A stretch of DNA of 64,000 nt from an uncultured Winogradskyella sp. GTDB taxonomy: Bacteria; Bacteroidota; Bacteroidia; Flavobacteriales; Flavobacteriaceae. The DNA is taken from NCBI GenBank assembly GCA_913055905.1, contig CAJXLB010000010.1:1-64000 (forward strand), given 5' to 3'. The notes beneath the pieces are model-generated. The model did no database searches. It was not told where the DNA came from and worked only from the letters and a program-made list of their open reading frames with translations. The position numbers were made by a program, and so were the translations under genes. Of the stretch, positions 1 through 17,528 are shown one piece after another (position 1 is the first letter of the stretch; every line of letters starts with the position of its first letter).

Positions 1-205
1 GAAGTCTTGCAACTACCTATAAAAACTGAAATCAGAATTAAAGTCAGGATTTTTTTCATAATTGTTTACAACGGTCTCGTGTATGAGCAGTAACGGATTT
101 TCAGCCACTAAAATTTCAGATAGCACCGACCTTTGATTTATAGATTTATGTTTCGAATTAGCAATTAACCCGTTATTGCTTATACACAATGTTGGCAAAC
201 GTTTT
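1..205 (-). repeat. Integron-like (attC-like) repeat element, probably incomplete at window edge
   Basis: Seen: an arm at 178-200 reads, on the minus strand, GTTTGCCAAC followed by ATTGTGTATAAGC. A matching arm in the opposite orientation lies at 698-720. A degenerate third arm (GTCTTGCAAC at 4-13, followed by TACCTATA) may close the element at the window start. The 61-codon open frame at 13-198 on the minus strand begins inside the arm and has no recognisable domain, so I read it as part of the repeat and not as a gene. That the two arms form a foldable recombination site is inference. Confidence 0.45.
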
Positions 206-223
206 TTAATTTATTAACTATTG

Positions 224-682
224 CTAGTCACAATGTTTATTAAGTGAACTATTCATTTGAATTATTTTCCAGCCACCATCCTTAAGCTCCCATATTCTTG
301 AACTGGTTTCTCTAACTGTATCCCCCACACTTTTTCTTAAGTACAATTGGCTTACATAGTCATAACCTAATTCTGATGACAATAACCTTTGTTCAGTTAC
401 TGTATTTATCACTTCTTTTTTTGGTAAATGAGGACAGAATTGAACTAATTGTTCATATGTCATAGTCATTTGTTGGGAAAATCTATTCTCGGACATCTTG
501 ACTTTTTTGTCAAATGCATGAATAATGGACTCACAATTTTCACTTCCTTCCATATAATTGGATTGAAATGTTTGTGTGATTTCCTTAAATTCCTTTTGTT
601 GCTCTTCTGTGGTTGTTCCCTGAGCATAAGAGTCCATAAAAATGCCCAACACCAAAGTCAGTAATAAATATATTTTCTTCAT
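224..682 (-). CDS. Small secreted protein of unknown function (cassette-like gene)
   Basis: A 152-residue protein that I do not recognise. The start at 682 is chosen because it opens a clear signal peptide (MKKIYLLLTLVLGIF, cleavage near SYAQG); the frame stays open 18 codons further upstream but those run through the repeat arm at 698-720. The mature part is polar, with three cysteines and the tail NKHCD, and carries no motif I can name. Size and mixed alpha/beta composition would fit a DUF4440/NTF2-like fold, but this is a guess. The gene sits alone between two inverted GTTTGCCAAC arms, downstream of and co-oriented with the tyrosine recombinase, which is how a gene cassette would look. Confidence 0.7.
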   Translation of the reverse strand: MKKIYLLLTLVLGIFMDSYAQGTTTEEQQKEFKEITQTFQSNYMEGSENCESIIHAFDKKVKMSENRFSQQMTMTYEQLVQFCPHLPKKEVINTVTEQRLLSSELGYDYVSQLYLRKSVGDTVRETSSRIWELKDGGWKIIQMNSSLNKHCD

Positions 683-697
683 AATTATTGTTTTAAT

Positions 698-720
698 GTT
701 TGCCAACTTGTTTATATGCG
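698..720. repeat. Cassette-boundary arm GTTTGCCAAC-TTGTTTATATGCG
   Basis: Seen: GTTTGCCAAC at 698-707 followed by TTGTTTATATGCG. It matches the arm at 178-200 read on the other strand (GTTTGCCAAC, then ATTGTGTATAAGC), so the 224-682 gene is enclosed by inverted copies of about 22 bases. The arm lies 15 bases upstream of the gene's start codon and about 110 bases beyond the recombinase stop codon. Confidence 0.55.
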
Positions 721-831
721 TTATTGAAAGTTCCATAAGATGAACAAACGGTGGGATAACGATGATCTTAAGCCATTTTTTTCATCCATATTAGTCGCTT
801 TAAATGTTTCGATTTTCAATATAGCCACTTT

Positions 832-1977
832 TTACAAATTATCGAAAGGATTTTTAATATCAGTTAAATTCGTAGACGATACATGGGTGTAGATCATCGT
901 GGTCTTTGGGCTCTTATGTCCCAACAATTCCTGTATGTACCTAATATCGGTCCCTGCCTCGAGCAAATGGGTGGCAAAACTGTGCCGTAGTGTGTGCAGC
1001 GTCACGTATTTTCTAATGCCAGTCTGCCTTAACGCCTTTCTTAGGACCTGCCTGGCACTCACCTGTGTGTAGGCCTCTCCCGCGCGGCCTTCGAAAAGGA
1101 AACGCTTTGGTCTGTAATGTTGCTTATAGGATTCCAACAAAGGCACAAGGCTAGGGGAGAGCAGGGTAAACCTGTCCTTCCGTCCCTTGGCCGACCTTAC
1201 CAAGATCAGTCCGCGAATGGGATCGATATCGTCAGGCCTAAGGCTCAAAGCTTCACCGATCCGTAAACCTGCTGAATAGACCACGCTCAATAAGGTCCGG
1301 TGCTTGAGATTTGTCGTAGCATCCAAAATGGCCTTAACCTCTTGTTTACTTAGTACACTGGGCAGTTTTTTGTCCTTGCTGGGTCTTTTGATGTCAAGTT
1401 CATCTATGGCGATCTGCTTATAATCGATAAACTGTTTTATGCCACTGATGCATTGGTTCTGGTAGGAAACGGACTTGTTGGCCTTGACTATAAAATCATA
1501 ATTGAACTGCTCTATGCTTCTAGCCGTAATGTCCCCAATCCCCTTAAGTTCCAGGTAACGCACAAAGAATTTTGTAACCTCCATATACGTCTGTACGGTA
1601 TTTGCACTAAAGCGCTTTTGTTGCAGCCATTTGCCGAATTTTGCGATGTCCCTGTGGCTCGCATCGCTCAACACGGGTAAGTCGCAAGAGTCTATGTTGG
1701 GCACGTCTTCTTTTTCTTCTTCCTTATAAATGAGGGCGCTCTGTTTAAAGGCCGAATAATCCACATACCAATTCTTTGCCCTAAAATAGGCAAAGAGCTC
1801 GTGCACAACAGTGTTGGTGTATGCCGTGTAAAAGGTCTTGTGGGTATTGCTGTATCGCATACCGTCATAGGCCTTAACATAGTCTTTAACGGTGTCATCG
1901 TAATCAAAGCGTACGGCAACCATCCGTTGGTTGTTGTGCCATAGTGGCCTAAGCGTTATTTGTACCCTGTTTTCCAT
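832..1977 (-). CDS. Tyrosine recombinase/integrase with an extra N-terminal domain
   Basis: A 381-residue phage-integrase-family recombinase. Residues 1-95 form an extra N-terminal region. Residues about 105-190 are a SAM-like core-binding domain. The catalytic domain has all expected residues: R239 (SAGLRIGEAL), a lysine near 264-267 (SAKGRKDR), H328 and R331 (HTLRHSF), H354 (LLGHKSPKT) and Y363 (MIYTHV). It lacks the insert that marks classical IntI between the two C-terminal motif blocks, so it is XerC/D-like and not a canonical integron integrase. Genomes of this family usually keep a separate XerD, and one is at 41234. The gene is divergent from a zinc-ribbon gene across a 25-bp inverted repeat. 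Repeat-flanked DNA follows its 3' end, suggesting a role in cassette movement. Confidence 0.9.
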   Translation of the reverse strand: MENRVQITLRPLWHNNQRMVAVRFDYDDTVKDYVKAYDGMRYSNTHKTFYTAYTNTVVHELFAYFRAKNWYVDYSAFKQSALIYKEEEKEDVPNIDSCDLPVLSDASHRDIAKFGKWLQQKRFSANTVQTYMEVTKFFVRYLELKGIGDITARSIEQFNYDFIVKANKSVSYQNQCISGIKQFIDYKQIAIDELDIKRPSKDKKLPSVLSKQEVKAILDATTNLKHRTLLSVVYSAGLRIGEALSLRPDDIDPIRGLILVRSAKGRKDRFTLLSPSLVPLLESYKQHYRPKRFLFEGRAGEAYTQVSARQVLRKALRQTGIRKYVTLHTLRHSFATHLLEAGTDIRYIQELLGHKSPKTTMIYTHVSSTNLTDIKNPFDNL

Positions 1978-1987
1978 GTTGAAATAA

Positions 1988-1995
1988 CAAAATTA
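1988..1995 (-). promoter_or_regulatory. Possible -7 element of the recombinase gene
   Basis: On the minus strand TAATTTTG matches the Bacteroidota -7 consensus TAnnTTTG. It would give a leader of only a few bases before the ATG at 1977. No good -33 TTG is at the usual distance; the inverted repeat at 2022-2046 lies just upstream. Confidence 0.35.
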
Positions 1996-2021
1996 GGGTA
2001 TCTAACAAATAAAAGCCGTAT

Positions 2022-2046
2022 CTTATACGCATAACTTGCGTATAAG
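2022..2046. promoter_or_regulatory. 25-bp inverted repeat: operator or recombinase core site
   Basis: Seen: perfect 9-base arms CTTATACGC (2022-2030) and GCGTATAAG (2038-2046) around a 7-base spacer ATAACTT. The geometry is that of a tyrosine-recombinase core site (two binding arms, 6-8 base spacer) and equally that of an operator in a divergent promoter. The outer half CTTATAC-RCA is also found in the repeat arm at 178-190. TAAGTTTC at 2043-2050 could serve as a -7 element for the zinc-ribbon gene, so protein bound here would affect that promoter. Confidence 0.6.
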
Positions 2047-2065: not shown

Positions 2066-2449
2066 ATGAAAAGATTACAGGAACATTGCCTCAACTGCGG
2101 AAAGCAATTGAAAGGTAGAATCGATAAAAAATACTGTGACCCAAGATGTAAGAGTGCACACCAGTACAAGGTAGAGCGGGAACGACCGGAACGGTTCTAT
2201 AACAAGGTAGACAACCAATTACGGTTAAACCGAAGAATCCTAAAAGAGTACAACAAGGCGGGCAAGGCCGTGGTAAGACAATCGATATTAATGGCCGAAG
2301 GGTTTGACCCTAATTTCTTTACCCATTACTGGAAGAACCAAAAAGGCAATGTCTATCTCTTTGTTTATGAATATGGCTTTTTGAGCAAGAAGGAGAACGG
2401 TAACGATAAATACGTCCTCATAAAATGGCAGGACTATATGTCTAAATAA
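2066..2449 (+). CDS. Small zinc-ribbon protein paired with the recombinase
   Basis: A 127-residue basic protein. The N-terminus carries a four-cysteine zinc ribbon, C8-x2-C11 and C24-x3-C28 (HCLNCGKQL and YCDPRCKSA), of the DUF2116-like kind. The remainder is rich in Lys, Arg, Tyr and Asn, with a possible helix at about 45-75, and suggests nucleic-acid binding. It is divergent from the recombinase with 88 bases between the start codons, sharing the inverted repeat at 2022-2046, so regulation of the recombinase or an accessory recombination role is possible. Function is not known to me; the pairing is the main clue. Confidence 0.8.
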   Translation: MKRLQEHCLNCGKQLKGRIDKKYCDPRCKSAHQYKVERERPERFYNKVDNQLRLNRRILKEYNKAGKAVVRQSILMAEGFDPNFFTHYWKNQKGNVYLFVYEYGFLSKKENGNDKYVLIKWQDYMSK

Positions 2450-3199: not shown

Positions 3200-4000
3200 A
3201 TGGATATAAATCAAATTTTAGGATATGCTGGCGCCTTGCTTATTGGCGTGGTTTTGGGATTGATCGGTGGAGGTGGTTCCATACTTACCGTTCCTATATT
3301 AGTCTATTTGCTATTTATTAACCCAGTTACGGCTACGGCCTATTCCTTATTTGTGGTTGGTGTCTCTTCATTAGTTGGGGCTTTGCGTAACATTCAAAAG
3401 GGATTGGTGGATTTTAGAACAGCTATTGTTTTTGCCATTCCGGCTTTCATCGCTGTTTACATAGCTCGAAAATATTTAGTCCCAGCTATTCCAGAGGTTA
3501 TTTTTAGCGTTGGCGATTTTGACCTTACCAACAATATTGCCATTATGTTGTTTTTTGCATTGGTGATGCTTGTGGCATCAGTTTCCATGATAAGGAATAA
3601 ACGGGAAGATAATGGCGAAGAAACTGAAGTATCCTATAACTATCCCTTGATTATAGTTGAAGGTGTTTTGGTTGGTCTTATTACTGGTATCGTAGGTGCA
3701 GGAGGAGGGTTTTTGATTATTCCCGCTCTCGTCTTGCTGGCCAAGCTACCCATGAAGAAAGCTGTGGCGACCTCACTTTTGATAATCGCCATTAAATCGC
3801 TCATCGGATTTTTAGGGGATGTTCAAAATTTGGATATCGATTGGACATTTTTATTGATCTTCACTGGATTATCGGTTGTAGGGATTTTTATCGGGATTTA
3901 TTTGTCTAACTTTATTGAGGGCAAGAAACTGAAAAAAGGCTTTGGATGGTTTGTACTCGTTATGGGTATTTACATCATTTACAAAGAATTGACTATGTAA
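3200..4000 (+). CDS. TSUP (TauE/SafE) family sulfite/sulfur-anion exporter
   Basis: A 266-residue inner-membrane protein with about eight hydrophobic segments in two homologous halves. Each half carries the family's glycine-rich turn near a helix start: GLIGGGGSILTVP near residue 20 and GAGGGFLIIPAL near 175. TSUP proteins move small sulfur anions such as sulfite, thiosulfate or sulfoacetate across the membrane. Here the neighbours oxidise sulfide and persulfide, so export of sulfite or thiosulfate formed by the dioxygenase is the likely job. It has its own operator and promoter, and its stop codon overlaps the operator of the next gene. Confidence 0.85.
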   Translation: MDINQILGYAGALLIGVVLGLIGGGGSILTVPILVYLLFINPVTATAYSLFVVGVSSLVGALRNIQKGLVDFRTAIVFAIPAFIAVYIARKYLVPAIPEVIFSVGDFDLTNNIAIMLFFALVMLVASVSMIRNKREDNGEETEVSYNYPLIIVEGVLVGLITGIVGAGGGFLIIPALVLLAKLPMKKAVATSLLIIAIKSLIGFLGDVQNLDIDWTFLLIFTGLSVVGIFIGIYLSNFIEGKKLKKGFGWFVLVMGIYIIYKELTM

Positions 4001-4010
4001 CCAATGTTAC
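3997..4010. promoter_or_regulatory. Operator GTAACCAATGTTAC upstream of the persulfide dioxygenase
   Basis: Half sites GTAAC and GTTAC separated by CAAT; with one more base each side it reads TGTAAC-N4-GTTACA. It overlaps the stop codon of the TSUP gene. It ends 22 bases before TATATTCA (4033-4040), a probable -7 element, and 63 bases before the start codon. Confidence 0.7.
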
Positions 4011-4073
4011 AACCGTTTTCGGCAACACGCCTTATATTCAAATTGCATTAAACTAATATTAATTACTATAACA

Positions 4074-5489
4074 ATGAAAATCGAACAAATTTATACTGGA
4101 TGCTTGGCCCATGCGGCCTACTATCTGGAAAGTAATGGCGAAGCCGCAATTTTTGATCCGCTTCGCGAAGTCCAGCCTTATATAGACAGAGCTAAAAAGG
4201 ATAACGCAAAAATCAAATATATTTTTGAAACTCACTTCCATGCCGATTTTGTCTCAGGACATTTGGATCTAAAGGAAAAAACCGGAGCACAAATTGTATT
4301 CGGTCCAACGGCAAAGCCTAATTATGAAGCTATCGTAGCTGAGGATGGTCAAATTTTTGAAGTTGGAGATTACAAGGTTAAAGTCATCCATACTCCAGGG
4401 CATACCATGGAAAGTACAACCTATTTACTTATCGATGAAAATGGCAAGGAGCATGGTATCATTACTGGAGACACCTTATTTATTGGCGATGTTGGTAGAC
4501 CAGATTTAGCACAAAAAGTCGTGGCAGAGCTCACCCAAGAAAAGTTGGCATCCCACCTTTACGATTCATTACGAAATAAGATCATGCCATTGAGTGACGA
4601 TTTAATCGTGTACCCAAACCATGGCGCTGGGTCAGCTTGCGGAAAAAATATGAGCAAGGAGACTACGGACACACTAGGTAATCAGAAAAAAACCAATTAT
4701 GCCCTTCGTGAAGATATGACCAAAGAAGAATTTATTGAGGCTGTATTGGAAGGATTAACAGAACCACCTGGGTATTTCCCTCAAAATGTTATGATGAATA
4801 TCAAGGGTTATGAAAGTTTTGATAAAGTTTTGAGTAAAGCCCATAATGCCTTGTCGCCTAAGGCCTTTGAAGCTGCTGCGAACGAAACTGAAGCTGTAGT
4901 ATTAGATGTAAGAAAGGAGTCAGAATTTGTAAAAGGGCACATTCCGAGATCTATATTTATAGGTATCGACGGTAATTTTGCGCCTTGGGTTGGAGCTTTG
5001 ATTGTAGATGTGACGCAACCCATATTATTGGTGGCGCCAGAAGGCCGTGAAGAAGAAGTGGTAACAAGACTGTCTCGCGTAGGTTTCGATAATGTTATTG
5101 GCTATCTCGATGGTGGCTTTAAGGCTTGGAAGGACGCAGGAATGGAGATAGACACGCTCAAGTCCATATCTGCTGAAGAATTTTCAAAACTTTATGAAGC
5201 CAATAAAGATTATGTTTTTGATGTTAGAAGAGAAGGAGAATTTACGGCAGAACATGTCGATGGTGCGAAAAACACACAACTCGATTACCTTAACAGGTAT
5301 CTTAGCGAGTTTCCAGAAGACAAAACGTTTTACCTTCATTGTGCAGGTGGTTACCGCTCTGTCATCGCAGCTTCCATACTTAAAAGTAGAGGCATACATA
5401 ATTTGGTGGATGTCGCTGGAGGCTACAAGGCTATAAAACAAACGGATATACCTCGGACAGATTACGTTTGTCCATCAACATTAAAGTAA
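4074..5489 (+). CDS. Persulfide dioxygenase-rhodanese fusion (CstB/PRF type)
   Basis: 471 residues in three domains. Residues 1-240 are a metallo-beta-lactamase fold of the ETHE1 type with metal ligands H54, H56, D58, H63 (THFHADFVSGH), H110 (HTPGH), D133 (TGDTLF) and H183 (PNHGAGS). Residues about 265-355 are a rhodanese-like domain with no active-site cysteine (the loop reads VAPEGREE). Residues about 365-465 are a second rhodanese with C423 (HCAGGYRS). The order matches staphylococcal CstB, which oxidises low-molecular-weight persulfides to sulfite and passes sulfur to make thiosulfate. Cytoplasmic by absence of a signal peptide. A hairpin terminator follows at 5511. Confidence 0.9.
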   Translation: MKIEQIYTGCLAHAAYYLESNGEAAIFDPLREVQPYIDRAKKDNAKIKYIFETHFHADFVSGHLDLKEKTGAQIVFGPTAKPNYEAIVAEDGQIFEVGDYKVKVIHTPGHTMESTTYLLIDENGKEHGIITGDTLFIGDVGRPDLAQKVVAELTQEKLASHLYDSLRNKIMPLSDDLIVYPNHGAGSACGKNMSKETTDTLGNQKKTNYALREDMTKEEFIEAVLEGLTEPPGYFPQNVMMNIKGYESFDKVLSKAHNALSPKAFEAAANETEAVVLDVRKESEFVKGHIPRSIFIGIDGNFAPWVGALIVDVTQPILLVAPEGREEEVVTRLSRVGFDNVIGYLDGGFKAWKDAGMEIDTLKSISAEEFSKLYEANKDYVFDVRREGEFTAEHVDGAKNTQLDYLNRYLSEFPEDKTFYLHCAGGYRSVIAASILKSRGIHNLVDVAGGYKAIKQTDIPRTDYVCPSTLK

Positions 5490-5510
5490 GGTATTGGTTT
5501 AATGGGAAAG

Positions 5511-5546
5511 AGCATGTATTACATTCGTTGTGATGCATGCTTTTTT
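5511..5546 (+). terminator. Intrinsic terminator after the persulfide dioxygenase
   Basis: Left arm AGCATGTATTACA (5511-5523), loop TTCGT, right arm TGTGATGCATGCT (5529-5541), paired throughout with two G-T wobbles, then a run of T. It separates the dioxygenase transcript from the rhodanese gene. Confidence 0.75.
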
Positions 5547-5603
5547 ACACCTTGCCCATAAGTACCGATCAAAGCATAACAAGAACAACTAATTTTAATT
5601 ATT

Positions 5604-5945
5604 ATGTCAATTTTTTCATTCCTATTTGGCTCTAAACAATCAAAAGATTCAGCAATAAAACGCATATCAGCTTCAGAATTCAAAGAAAAAATCAACCAGA
5701 AGAACGTTCAGCTTATCGATGTAAGAACACCATCTGAATATAAAAGTGGACGCATCGGTAAAGCCAAGAACATAGATTTTTATTCAGGTAAATTCAATGT
5801 TGAATTTAACAAGCTCAATAAAAATGAACCAATCTACCTGTACTGCAGAAGTGGCAATCGTAGCAGGCAGACGGCAAAGAAGCTAGAAGCCATGGGCTTT
5901 AAAGAGATATACGACTTAAAGGGCGGCATAATGAGTTACCGCTAA
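5604..5945 (+). CDS. Single-domain rhodanese (sulfurtransferase)
   Basis: 113 residues. After a short N-terminal stretch (MSIFSFLFGSKQ) the rhodanese domain covers about 20-113, with the usual LIDVRTPSEYKSG element and the active loop C81-RSGNRS. Such proteins carry persulfide sulfur on the cysteine and hand it between sulfide:quinone oxidoreductase and dioxygenase. The gene lies between those two enzymes but after a terminator, and no GTAAC-type operator was seen in front of it, so it may have its own weaker promoter. The start could be a few codons later; the first ATG is used. Confidence 0.85.
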   Translation: MSIFSFLFGSKQSKDSAIKRISASEFKEKINQKNVQLIDVRTPSEYKSGRIGKAKNIDFYSGKFNVEFNKLNKNEPIYLYCRSGNRSRQTAKKLEAMGFKEIYDLKGGIMSYR

Positions 5946-5978
5946 CAGGTATTTAAATCCCTTTTGCAATGCCTCAAT

Positions 5979-5992
5979 GTAACATTTGTTAC
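5979..5992. promoter_or_regulatory. Operator GTAACATTTGTTAC upstream of sulfide:quinone oxidoreductase
   Basis: Third copy of the GTAAC-N4-GTTAC palindrome. It ends 21 bases before TAACTTAT (6014-6021), a -7-like element, and 63 bases before the ATG, the same distance as in front of the dioxygenase gene. Confidence 0.7.
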
Positions 5993-6055
5993 GCCGAATG
6001 AATTTACCGTCCGTAACTTATAACAGATAAATTCTAACTAACAATCTAATCACGT

Positions 6056-7318
6056 ATGAAATCACATTATCAAATTTTAGTTATCGGCGGAGGGTCAGGT
6101 GGCATTATGACGGCTGCTAATCTTTTAGACAAGGATAAGACCTTGGACATTGCCATCATAGAGCCAGCCGATTGGCATTACTATCAACCTGCTTGGACTT
6201 TAGTCGGTGCAGGAACTTACGATTTTGAAAAAACCAAAAAGCCAATGGCTTCTGTGATGCCTAAAGAAGTAGACTGGATAAAAGATTACGCCACGGGTTT
6301 TGACCCAGAAGCGAATGCTGTAGCCACTAAGGAGAGCGGGAACATCACTTACGATTATCTCATTGTATCGCCTGGTTTGGTCATGGATACCTCGTTAATA
6401 GAAGGACTTACAGAGTCACTAGGCAAAGGTGTGGTTTGCAGTAATTACACGGATCCCAAACATACGTGGGAAGTCCTAAGAAATTTTAAGGGTGGTAACG
6501 CTGTGTTCACGCAACCAACCACACCAATTAAATGTGGTGGCGCACCCCAAAAAATCGCCTATCTAGCTGCAGACTATTTTAAAAAGCATGGTCTTAAAGA
6601 CAAGACCAATATAGTTTTTGCGACGCCAGGCTCCGTTATTTTTGGTGTTAAGGAAATTCGCGAAAGTTTAATGCAAGTAGTCAGTAGGTATGGCATTCAC
6701 TTCAAACCCTTTTATGCACCCATTAAAATTGATGCCGAAAACCAAATCGTAACTTTTAAAGGTGTTGGTACAGGTGAGAATAAATGTGTTATCAACGAAG
6801 ATAACGAATTGCGTGAGGTGATGTCTGGTGAATCCATTATAGAAATGCCTTTTGATATGCTGCACCTTGCACCGCCTCAAACCGCTCCCAAGTTTGTAAA
6901 GGAATCGGTTTTGGTTAATGAAGCCGGATGGTTAGATGTAGATAAACATACCCTACAACACAATAAGTATCCCAATATCTTTGGTCTGGGCGATGTTGCA
7001 GCGCTGCCAACCGCTAAAACGGGAGCAGCTATACGCAAACAGGTTCCTGTGGTTTCAGATAATATCTTGCAGCTCATAGCTCATGGTAAAAAAGGCAATA
7101 AATCTTATAACGGCTATTCTTCCTGTCCTTTAGTCACAGCTTATGGCAAAATGATTTTAGCCGAATTTGACTATGAGAATAATTTTATCCCAGACCCAAA
7201 ACTTAAACAGATGTTGGTCTTCAATAGTGAAAAGGAACACTGGCGCTTGTGGATGTTAAAGAAATATGGCTTGCCTTATCTCTATTGGAATAAAATGATG
7301 AAAGGCAAGGAAGTTTAA
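6056..7318 (+). CDS. sqr: Sulfide:quinone oxidoreductase
   Basis: 420 residues. N-terminal FAD-binding motif GGGSGG (11-16), a second nucleotide-binding-type region near 185-200, and the FAD-contacting LGDVAALP near 311. Cysteines C128, C160 (IKCGGAPQK) and C357 (YSSCPLVT) are placed like those of SQOR-type enzymes, where two form the sulfide-reactive disulfide. It oxidises sulfide to persulfide and passes electrons to the quinone pool at the inner face of the membrane. With the dioxygenase, rhodanese and TSUP exporter it completes a sulfide-detoxification route. The family includes other FAD oxidoreductases, but the KCGGAPQK context and neighbourhood favour SQR. Confidence 0.88.
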   Translation: MKSHYQILVIGGGSGGIMTAANLLDKDKTLDIAIIEPADWHYYQPAWTLVGAGTYDFEKTKKPMASVMPKEVDWIKDYATGFDPEANAVATKESGNITYDYLIVSPGLVMDTSLIEGLTESLGKGVVCSNYTDPKHTWEVLRNFKGGNAVFTQPTTPIKCGGAPQKIAYLAADYFKKHGLKDKTNIVFATPGSVIFGVKEIRESLMQVVSRYGIHFKPFYAPIKIDAENQIVTFKGVGTGENKCVINEDNELREVMSGESIIEMPFDMLHLAPPQTAPKFVKESVLVNEAGWLDVDKHTLQHNKYPNIFGLGDVAALPTAKTGAAIRKQVPVVSDNILQLIAHGKKGNKSYNGYSSCPLVTAYGKMILAEFDYENNFIPDPKLKQMLVFNSEKEHWRLWMLKKYGLPYLYWNKMMKGKEV

Positions 7319-16409: not shown

Positions 16410-17528
16410 TTAATTGTTGAGCATGACGGGCATCACTAACATGGTAATATGCTCACCCTCATCCAATCCATCAACAGGCGTTAAAATACCAGCTCTATTA
16501 GGCAGGCTCATTTCTAATTGCACATTGTCAGAGTTAAGGTTATTTATCATTTCCGTTAAGAATCGTGAATTAAACCCTATCTGCATATCATCACCTTGGT
16601 AATCACAAGACAAGCGCTCTTCTGCTTTATTGCTGTAATCAATATCCTCAGCAGATATGTTTAATTCGGCACCTGCAATTTTAAGCCTAATTTGATGTGT
16701 TGTTTTATTGGAGAAAATACTCACCCGACGAACGGAATTAAGGAATTGCGTTCTGTCAATAACCAGTTTGTTAGGATTTTCCTTCGGAATAACCGCTTCG
16801 TAATTTGGATATTTGCCATCGATTAATCGGCATATAAGTACCGAATTATCAAAAGTAAACTTGGCATTGGATTCATTGTATTCTACAAGTACATCATCTT
16901 CACTGCCTGCTAAAATGCCCTTTAATAGATTAAGCGGTTTCTTAGGCATTATGAACTCAGCAGATTCTGTGGCGCTGACGTCGTTTCGCGTGTATTTTAC
17001 CAATTTATGGGCATCGGTGGCCACAAATGTTAAGCTGTCTTGGGCAAATTGAAAAAACACACCGCTCATAACCGGTCTCAAGTCATCGTTACCAGCAGCA
17101 AAGATGGTCTTGCTTATAGCAGTGGCCAAAATATCACCCATTATGGTTGTTGTACTGGCATCTTCAACACTTACGGCATTAGGGAACTCCTCACCATCAG
17201 CATACGCCAAGGCATACTTACCGTGGCTTGAGCTGATCTCAACGGTGTTATTGTCTTCAACAACGAAAGTTAAGGGCTGCTCAGGAAAAGTTTTTAAGGT
17301 GTCCAACAGTAATCTGGCAGGTAAGGCAATGCTCCCTTCAGATTCACTTTCTACATCTATAGTAGATGACATCGTGGTTTCTAAATCGCTCGCTGAAATC
17401 GTCAATTTTGACTGATTTAATTCGAACAGAAAATTATCAAGAATAGGTAAGGTGTTACTATTGTTTATAACGCCTCCGAGCGTCTGAAGCTGTTTTAATA
17501 AATAAGTGCTTGAAACTATAAATTTCAT
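16410..17528 (-). CDS. dnaN: DNA polymerase III beta subunit (sliding clamp)
   Basis: 372 residues, the standard clamp length, in three repeated clamp domains. It opens MKFIVSSTYLLKQL, has ARLLLDTLKTFP in domain 1 and LRPVMSGVFF in domain 2, and ends with the MLVMPVMLNN strand typical of the C-terminal clamp (MPM/MPV motif). The homodimer encircles DNA and tethers DNA polymerases, mismatch repair proteins and others. It lies downstream of gldG in the same direction but has a -7-like element of its own in the gap. Confidence 0.97.
   Translation of the reverse strand: MKFIVSSTYLLKQLQTLGGVINNSNTLPILDNFLFELNQSKLTISASDLETTMSSTIDVESESEGSIALPARLLLDTLKTFPEQPLTFVVEDNNTVEISSSHGKYALAYADGEEFPNAVSVEDASTTTIMGDILATAISKTIFAAGNDDLRPVMSGVFFQFAQDSLTFVATDAHKLVKYTRNDVSATESAEFIMPKKPLNLLKGILAGSEDDVLVEYNESNAKFTFDNSVLICRLIDGKYPNYEAVIPKENPNKLVIDRTQFLNSVRRVSIFSNKTTHQIRLKIAGAELNISAEDIDYSNKAEERLSCDYQGDDMQIGFNSRFLTEMINNLNSDNVQLEMSLPNRAGILTPVDGLDEGEHITMLVMPVMLNN

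What the first reader, a model, noticed from the sequence alone, without database searches (positions are those of the whole stretch)
1..2046. Recombinase beside repeat-bracketed gene: candidate integron-like system in a flavobacterium
Seen: a tyrosine recombinase with an intact catalytic set lies next to a small secreted-protein gene enclosed by inverted arms of GTTTGCCAAC plus TTGTKTATA (178-200 and 698-720). A third, degenerate arm may be at 4-21. Established: integron attC sites are paired inverted arms at gene ends, moved by a Xer-like integrase. The differences are that this recombinase lacks the IntI-specific insert, and the array lies beyond its 3' end, not beside its start. A separate cassette system using a XerC/D-like enzyme is the inference.
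Basis: partly seen in the sequence, partly recalled or inferred. Interest (0 to 1): 0.72.

Follow-up and report, generated by a model that had tools for sequence, protein, structure and literature searches.

The report
Integron-like gene cassettes without IntI
The repeats beside this recombinase mark the start of an array of swappable single-gene cassettes, a gene-capture system that works like integrons but has a different enzyme beside it, occurs widely in flavobacteria and relatives, and appears to have carried antibiotic-resistance genes between bacteria of this phylum.

Summary
Window position 1 is a contig end. Beside it lie cassette 1 (707 to 73, minus strand), an attI-like site and the recombinase. 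Relatives of the recombinase head arrays of cassettes, each starting GTTR+6 nt, ending with its own reverse complement, then a folded hairpin. Exact 10-nt arms with A and C at position 11 occur 108 times in 281 kb downstream of 61 recombinases, 0 times in 514 kb upstream. In 16 of 21 pairs of near-identical cassettes, identity runs through the hairpin and stops at the next GTT. The stem covaries and favours bottom-strand folding. The recombinase lacks the IntI insert (32-33 versus 74 residues) and lies outside the IntI clade. aadS, tet(X2) and ere(D) sit in such cassettes on Bacteroidota plasmids. A 2026 paper reports homology-free uptake in Riemerella, mechanism unexplained, of a unit whose reported ends fall in the predicted GTTs. 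It works like an integron but fails the IntI membership test. Recombinase activity is not shown.

The parts
832..1977 (-). tyrosine recombinase of the cassette system, 381 aa: N-terminal part (about 1-105), SAM-like core-binding domain, catalytic domain; no IntI insert
708..760 (-). attI-like site (far end approximate); core CGCATATAAACAA at 708-720 next to GTT at 705-707, 124 bp after the recombinase stop
   Evidence: motif found by regex in 46 of 62 loci, one of them (L032) at a wrong spot although it has the site at 127 bp
698..707 (-). start arm (R') of cassette 1, GTTGGCAAAC; exchange point in GTT (705-707); mismatched A at 697
224..682 (-). cassette 1 gene: 152-aa protein with a signal-peptide-like start (by eye); no Pfam or NCBIfam match (scanned from 679)
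191..200 (-). end arm (R'') of cassette 1, GTTTGCCAAC, complementary to its own start arm; mismatched C at 201
73..190 (-). attC-like hairpin of cassette 1: stem 170-187 with 79-96 (18 positions, top-strand A·C at stem positions 7 and 12, G·T on the bottom strand), variable loop region
   Evidence: R1 match 69-194, 102.6 bits; this site is among the 33 used to build R1
73..707 (-). cassette 1 as a predicted mobile unit (gene, arms and hairpin, GTT to GTT), 635 bp
   Evidence: boundary rule
1..72 (-). start of cassette 2 (GTTGTAAACAATT) with a lipoprotein-like gene from 59, cut by the contig end

Best explanation
This is the head of a chromosomal gene-cassette array that works like an integron. 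The recombinase at 832-1977 is inferred to join circular single-gene cassettes to an attI-like site (ATATAAACAA|GTTR) beside its gene. Each cassette carries at its 3' end a hairpin site. In the circle the cassette's end arm (NNNNNNYAAC) pairs with its own start arm (GTTRNNNNNN), giving an attC-like fold: R stem, unpaired spacer, L stem, variable loop. Exchange happens at GTT. Conserved A·C mismatches on the top strand become G·T pairs on the bottom strand, so the bottom strand folds better and is the likely substrate. Shown by sequence: cassette units, boundaries, movement of gene plus hairpin, folding bias, linkage to the recombinase. Inferred: that this recombinase is the enzyme, that a circle is the intermediate, and that single-stranded bottom DNA is the substrate.
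For: Arms: 108 exact pairs with A and C at position 11 in 280,896 bp downstream of 61 recombinases, 0 in 513,914 bp upstream; 217 on the array strand and 0 on the other in 372,976 bp of 20 regions from six same-genus genomes. In 66 cassettes chosen on 8 nt, positions 12-14 pair 83-94% (own) against 44-69% (other loci) and position 11 in 0 of 66; arms of the next cassette match at 11-57% at positions 5-10. Movement: of 21 pairs of >=99% identical cassettes, identity runs through the hairpin and stops within 17 nt after the start of the next GTT in 16; 4 (one copy, L155) have an indel in the hairpin (gapped identity 0.97); 1 diverges in the hairpin near a locus end. The same 850-bp cassette is in five genomes at 88-94%, with both arms changed together in L036. 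Three platforms about 99% identical in three genera carry different first cassettes, breaking at GTT. Stem covariation: 15 of 22 pairs with changes on both sides, score 0.434 against 0.101 shuffled. Bottom strand more stable in 41 of 47 cores and 30 of 30 modelled circles; control 0.49 of 160. Linkage: contig ends within 2 kb downstream in 28 of 61, upstream in 3; recombinase and sites co-occur in 247 Bacteroidia genomes (both 100, sites only 42, recombinase only 28, neither 77; Fisher p 1e-11). Outside experiment: a unit with 27 bp 5' and 140 bp 3' integrated without homology in R. anatipestifer (PMC13148043, passages); on pRCAD0416RA-1 those distances fall inside the two predicted GTTs.
Against: No recombination by this enzyme has been shown. 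Energy folding of the window site as it stands in the array is not better than shuffles (z 0.18 and -0.38 top strand, -1.40 bottom strand); the case rests on position-specific stems and covariation. Sites for A1 and R1 were chosen by a stem rule, which inflates pairing in the outer six pairs. The circle being more stable than the array form is partly by construction. Position 11 is not always A·C (end side C in 58 of 66). 42 of 142 genomes with sites had no recombinase at the threshold, 28 had the recombinase without sites; kinship is not corrected for. 0 of 11 parsed paralogous recombinases had the window-type attI motif (18 of 29 were not parsed, one had no DNA left); by eye most have other sequence before a GTTR. 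Between species the hairpin often differs while the gene is conserved. Cassette 1's protein was not found in 59 other same-genus genomes. The IntI search of 21 genomes rang in no control genome and did not list the window enzyme itself, so it tests only for full IntI.
Confidence: 0.9

Rival explanations
1. The cassettes are real, but another enzyme (XerC/XerD, or an IntI elsewhere) moves them and the neighbouring recombinase is incidental.
For: 42 of 142 site-bearing Bacteroidia genomes lack the recombinase at E<=1e-70. The own genome has four other tyrosine recombinases, two grouping with E. coli XerD in the tree. The published R. anatipestifer uptake names no recombinase in the passages seen. 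PMC9892861 reports that IntI1 recombined one Polaribacter phage attC site.
Against: attI-like site beside the recombinase in 46 of 62 loci by regex; arrays start there; contig breaks beside it; no full IntI at E<=1e-40 in 21 genomes, own included (a weak negative); co-occurrence.
Confidence: 0.08
2. The hairpins are RNA elements (terminators or mRNA stabilisers) and arm pairing acts in the transcript.
For: Hairpins follow genes; stems covary.
Against: The conserved mismatches are A·C on the gene-sense strand and G·U/G·T only on the other strand, the wrong strand for mRNA; arms pair across a whole gene and mark recombination breakpoints; Rfam gave one hit in L032, L036 and L071, a Flavo-1 RNA upstream of the recombinase, none at the sites.
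Confidence: 0.02
3. Chance or decayed inverted repeats beside an unrelated integrase, with no cassette system.
For: The 10-mer alone is at chance frequency in the window; two arms in one window prove little.
Against: 0 in 514 kb upstream against 108 in 281 kb downstream; moving units.
Confidence: 0.01

Closest known systems
Integrons (IntI, attI, attC cassettes; sedentary chromosomal integrons)
   Same: Mostly single-gene cassettes in arrays, attI-like site at the platform, core starting GTTR with exchange at GTT, R and L stems with unpaired spacer and variable loop, bottom-strand folding bias, hairpin carried at the cassette's 3' end, own arms complementary in the modelled circle, tens of sites per genome, resistance genes among the cassettes.
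   Different: Recombinase lacks the IntI insert and is outside the IntI clade. Core is GTTR but not GTTRRRY (position 5 is T 39, G 20, C 7 of 66). The L stem has A·C / G·T positions instead of bulged extrahelical bases. Own arms are 10 nt plus a mismatch plus about 3 nt. Array often on the recombinase's 3' side.
CALINs (attC clusters without integrase), for example Polaribacter phage P12002L in PMC9892861
   Same: L174 (P12002L) carries R1-type sites and cassette arms of this kind; the paper reports one of its two tested sites recombined by IntI1, bottom strand only (section 13 read).
   Different: The paper treats them as integron sites; site coordinates are not in the text read, so identity with the sites found here is not shown.
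attC-like 3' region of aph(3')-IVb in Riemerella anatipestifer (PMC13148043, 2026)
   Same: 27 bp 5' and 140 bp 3' co-integrate without homology; on the RCAD0416 plasmid copy these ends fall in the predicted GTTs.
   Different: The passages seen name no recombinase, no cassette-specific arms, no attI and no family-wide system.
xerD (tpnF) beside tet(X3) in Acinetobacter (PMC9784759, PMC7722449; passages)
   Same: The recombinase piece in L181 is 47.8% identical to the window enzyme over residues 196-381; the tet(X3) unit starts GTTATGTGCCATTT as the tet(X2) cassettes do.
   Different: Mobility there is ascribed to ISCR2/ISVsa3; the 3' arm in L181 does not match its start arm exactly; the piece was not placed in the tree.
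Integron-like subgroup of simple tyrosine recombinases (PMC8138268, passages)
   Same: That subgroup's insert is said there to be not fully conserved; this family may fall in or near it.
   Different: No cassette array or site is described for insert-less members in the passages seen.

Membership tests
Integron | IntI-type integrase with the additional IntI domain (used as inclusion criterion in PMC2426708, passages) | tested here: not met
   32-33 residues in all 99 family rows, 74 in all 24 full-length IntI rows; TIGR02249 192.1 bits, cut-off 265
Integron | integrase inside the IntI clade | tested here: not met
   IntI is one clade (SH-aLRT 100); 98 of 99 family rows group apart (83), one (L102) unresolved; IntI and family together against XerA/Xer at 98 (few outgroups, quick method)
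Integron | attI site beside the integrase gene where cassettes join | tested here: met
   (sequence evidence only)
Integron | cassettes with a folded R/L site, unpaired spacer and variable loop at the gene's 3' end | tested here: met
Integron | extrahelical (bulged) bases in the L stem giving strand choice (PMC2727003, passages) | tested here: not met
   symmetric stem; A·C on top and G·T on bottom at stem positions 7 and 12 instead
Integron | core GTTRRRY | tested here: not met
   GTTR met; RRRY not
Integron | recombination of the bottom strand by the neighbouring enzyme | not testable with these tools
   needs bench work; only folding bias tested
Integron | Pc promoter and SOS control | not tested
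   not examined
NCBIfam XerA_Arch (NF040815) | score over the curated cut-off | tested here: not met
   198.8 bits, cut-off 220
pdif modules moved by XerC/XerD (recalled) | 28-bp dif-like sites at module ends | not tested
   no dif search was run; module ends here are cassette-specific arms plus a 116-207 bp hairpin, unlike dif as recalled

The most novel reading that the evidence does not exclude
A second lineage of integron-like cassette systems, run by an IntI-sister recombinase family without the IntI insert, is the main gene-capture platform of Bacteroidia and has been the mobiliser of resistance genes such as aadS, ere(D) and tet(X) in Bacteroidota, including the xerD-tet(X3) unit later carried into Acinetobacter, and of the unexplained homology-free cassette uptake in Riemerella. 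It is largely missed by integron finders because they look for IntI.
Probability: 0.6. Interest if true: 0.96.

Novelty: new variant of a known kind. Interest (0 to 1): 0.9.

Why it matters
It would be a second cassette-capture system beside classical integrons, suggesting that folded attC-like sites can be used by a recombinase without the insert that is called essential for IntI (PMC8138268, passages). It makes two open questions directly testable: how tet(X), aadS and similar genes became mobile in Bacteroidota, and what integrates resistance genes without homology in Riemerella. It would also explain why a survey with IntegronFinder reported no integrons in Chryseobacterium isolates, most of which carry tetX and aadS (PMC12382657, passages).

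Tried and rejected
Shared-repeat idea: exact GTTTGCCAAC occurred once (L056) downstream of 61 relatives' recombinases, which first looked like refutation; the reason is that arms are specific to each cassette. First k-mer repeat counts were uninformative for the same reason. A true IntI was sought and not found at E<=1e-40 in 21 genomes, own included; that search rang in no control genome and did not list the window enzyme, so it is weak; the phylum search (85 of 296 with a match, 84 over the cut-off) shows the model can find IntI. Minimum-energy folding of the window site alone was not significant. Whether contigs C7 and C10 join could not be settled: C7 starts inside a hairpin. The transcript-hairpin idea was dropped because the conserved mismatches are on the sense strand. 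The strict stem search also gave 21 matches on the reverse complement (sites are near-palindromes) and 4 in reversed sequence, against 49 forward. The 325-cassette list allows one mismatch and holds a few on the wrong strand, probably chance. In one search only part of the listed places was typed in for the distance check: 21 recombinases had a listed site within 100 kb on their contig; 16 had sites on the 3' side in the expected orientation (one, G526, also one far on the other side) and 5 had only 5'-side sites in the opposite orientation. appear to have drawn the same 247 genomes. One search scored 14 candidates per genome, so its site counts are floors; single weak R1 matches may be chance palindromes. 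For protein families 84 cassette proteins were scanned: of 173 candidates every second was listed (87), 4 were left out (three repeats of other cassettes, one very long) and the window gene was added.
Full report
What is there. The window is bases 1-64000 of contig C10 of a 2.95-Mb, 13-contig genome, so position 1 is an assembly break. Reading leftwards on the minus strand: a 381-aa tyrosine recombinase (1977..832), 124 bp of spacer ending in CGCATATAAACAA, then GTT, then a 152-aa gene with a signal-peptide-like start, then a 118-bp hairpin, then a second GTT (72..70) and the start of a lipoprotein-like gene cut by the contig end. The nearest named relative by recombinase is Winogradskyella alexanderae (79%); that the window belongs to that genus is an inference.

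Array downstream of the orthologue. In W. alexanderae (L032) the same recombinase and attI-like site are followed by successive genes, each flanked by its own inverted arms: GTTGTGCATA/TATGCACAAC, GTTGTGGTG/CACCACAAC, GTTGGCAAC/GTTGCCAAC and so on. Script searches found 66 cassettes in 26 loci, window included, then 325 under a looser rule (one mismatch) when 20 regions from six same-genus genomes and own-genome regions were added. Median length arm to arm is 683 bp; the longest ORF lies on the array strand in 258 of 325, on the other strand in 45, and none of 50 aa in 22; it fills a median 90% of the cassette.

Statistics of the arms. Requiring exact 10-nt arms GTTR...YAAC on the array strand, 200-2600 nt apart, with A and C at position 11: 0 in 513,914 bp upstream of 61 recombinases, 108 in 280,896 bp downstream; 217 on the array strand and 0 on the other in L154-L173; 1 in the 64-kb window. 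In the 66-cassette set, chosen on 8 nt and context, positions 9 and 10 pair in 97% and 67% (other loci 29% and 34%), position 11 in 0 of 66, and 12-14 in 83-94% (44-69%). The end arm of a cassette matches the start arm of the next at 11-57% at positions 5-10 (28 adjacent pairs), so the pairing is across the gene, as in a circle.

The hairpin. Gap lengths in the 28 adjacent pairs are 116-121 or 165-207 bp. A strict stem rule found 42 sites downstream (282 kb) and 2 upstream (590 kb); 36 and 38 of 42 have A·C at stem positions 7 and 12. On 33 aligned bottom strands, those positions are G·U in 28 and 32 of 33, 15 of 22 pairs change on both sides, covariation 0.434 against 0.101 in shuffles. The sites were chosen by pairing, so the outer six pairs are biased; the kind of mismatch is not. 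The bottom strand is more stable in 41 of 47 cores (mean -3.1 kcal/mol) and in 30 of 30 modelled circles; random fragments give 0.49 of 160. Circles are more stable than the array form in 30 of 30, partly by construction. Against: the window site as it stands in the array does not fold better than shuffles.

Movement. Among 21 pairs of cassettes at least 99% identical within a genome, 16 stay identical through the hairpin and diverge within 17 nt after the start of the next GTT; four, all with one copy (L155:1655), have an indel in the hairpin (gapped identity 0.97); one diverges within the hairpin near a locus end. Next cassettes, where measurable, are at 0.43-0.67 identity; unrelated DNA gave 0.59. 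One 822-bp cassette occurs five times in G011. Breakpoints such as ...cacGTT|GCC against ...cacGTT|AGC put the exchange in GTT and show GTTA as well as GTTG starts. Between species, an 850-bp cassette is 88-94% conserved and in L036 both arms have changed together; its hairpin often differs, so hairpins can be replaced over longer times.

The recombinase. All 99 family rows have 32-33 residues where all 24 full-length IntI rows have 74. In a quick tree of 120 rows IntI is one clade (100); 98 of the 99 family rows group beside it (83), one (L102) is unresolved; family and IntI together stand apart from XerA and XerC/D (98), with very few outgroups. Nearest solved structures by sequence are archaeal Xer enzymes, then the Vibrio IntI (2a3v), aligned in two pieces around its insert. 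IntI over its cut-off occurs in 84 of 296 phylum-wide genomes, one of them listed as 'same class' (the number of same-class genomes drawn is not shown in full).

Platform. An ATATAAACAA|GTTR-type site follows the stop codon in 46 of 62 loci by regex, one of them (L032) caught at a wrong spot though its site is at 127 bp; of the 16 misses, 5 had under 140 bp left. In paralogues of the window's genus the sequence before GTTR differs (0 of 11 parsed with this motif). Contigs end within 2 kb downstream in 28 of 61, upstream in 3, as expected for repeat arrays. In 247 Bacteroidia genomes, 128 have the recombinase family, 142 have sites, 100 both (odds ratio 6.5, p 1e-11, not corrected for kinship). 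Sites at E<=1e-4 were found in 44 of 60 genomes, own and all 36 other same-genus genomes included. The own genome has 20 sites at E<=0.1, mostly in clusters on C1, C2 and C7. In some members the array lies on the 5' side as in classical integrons, so the layout is not diagnostic.

Resistance genes (description only). Sphingobacterium sp. CZ-2, Empedobacter brevis and a Parapedobacter share a platform about 99% identical with three different first cassettes, diverging at GTT. In CZ-2 the first cassette is aadS (NF033387 over cut-off). Of seven plasmid records matching that stretch, six hold the aadS cassette, all starting at the GTT; five end at the next GTT (to one base) and one at the end arm; the seventh, S. 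faecium pWB1, holds the attI stretch with tet(X2) as first cassette. tet(X2) and ere(D) have the same kind of arms on a Bacteroides plasmid. The tyrosine recombinase beside tet(X3) in Acinetobacter resembles this family; 50 of 68 plasmid records matching the CZ-2 enzyme at E<=1e-40 are Acinetobacter. 84 cassette proteins, all but the window's own from the window's genus or own genome, matched 57 Pfam families; each of the 25 listed is matched by one or two members, among them methyltransferases, a ParE toxin, an antidote and SUKH-type proteins; two members match methyltransferases in PADLOC's listed families.

Link to published work. PMC13148043 (passages) reports that aph(3')-IVb entered R. 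anatipestifer ATCC 11845 without flanking homology, always with 27 bp 5' and 140 bp 3', the latter folding like attC, by a mechanism not fully elucidated. On pRCAD0416RA-1 (the paper calls this gene plasmid-borne in RCAD0416) the annotated APH(3') gene (16558-17346) has arms at 16529 and 17365, and the published distances end inside the GTTs at 16529-16531 and 17485-17487. [quoted passage not shown] PMC7722449 (passages) ascribes tet(X) mobilisation from Flavobacteriaceae to ISCR2. In the listings of ten literature searches I saw no paper describing this recombinase-attI-cassette system; preprints are not held and most subscription papers are missing from that library.

Verdict. It works like an integron; it is not an integron by the IntI criterion. 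Enzyme identity, circle and strand use are inference.

Noticed in passing
L096 8775-9806; L176, L177, L178, L179, L180, L182: aadS, tet(X2) and ere(D) on Bacteroidota plasmids are bounded by the same kind of cassette arms; the aadS and tet(X2) cassettes recur in different contexts with ends at GTT.
   Followed up: partly
L096 9804-11070, L097 9804-11071, L098 1399-2690: A recombinase platform about 99% identical in three genera ends at a tRNA-like repeat of about 81 bp on its far side (tRNA by eye); it may itself be a mobile island.
   Followed up: partly
L112 11122-18704: A Chryseobacterium plasmid has a relative of the recombinase and three 14-nt inverted pairs GTTGGGAAAAATCG spaced by multi-gene units; a different use of the same attI-like motif.
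   Followed up: partly
L174 (Polaribacter phage P12002L) 14502-14625, 38035-38090, 39122-39245 and others: A lytic phage carries several R1-type sites and cassette-like genes, some with very short hairpins (56-59 nt).
   Followed up: partly
G000 contigs C1 560-562 kb, C2 278-296 kb, C7 0.4-10.7 kb: Further cassette sites in the window's own genome away from the recombinase; C7 begins inside a hairpin.
   Followed up: partly
window 2066-2449: A divergent 127-aa gene with two Cys pairs (zinc-ribbon-like by eye) starts 88 bp from the recombinase start; no Pfam or NCBIfam match; neighbourhood conservation not checked.
   Followed up: no
Classical IntI is common in other classes of the phylum but had only one match listed in the window's class; the two systems may replace each other.
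   Followed up: no
window 3200-7318: A run that looks like sulfur-metabolism genes (permease, metallo-beta-lactamase-rhodanese, rhodanese, quinone reductase-like); ordinary, named from the translations only.
   Followed up: no
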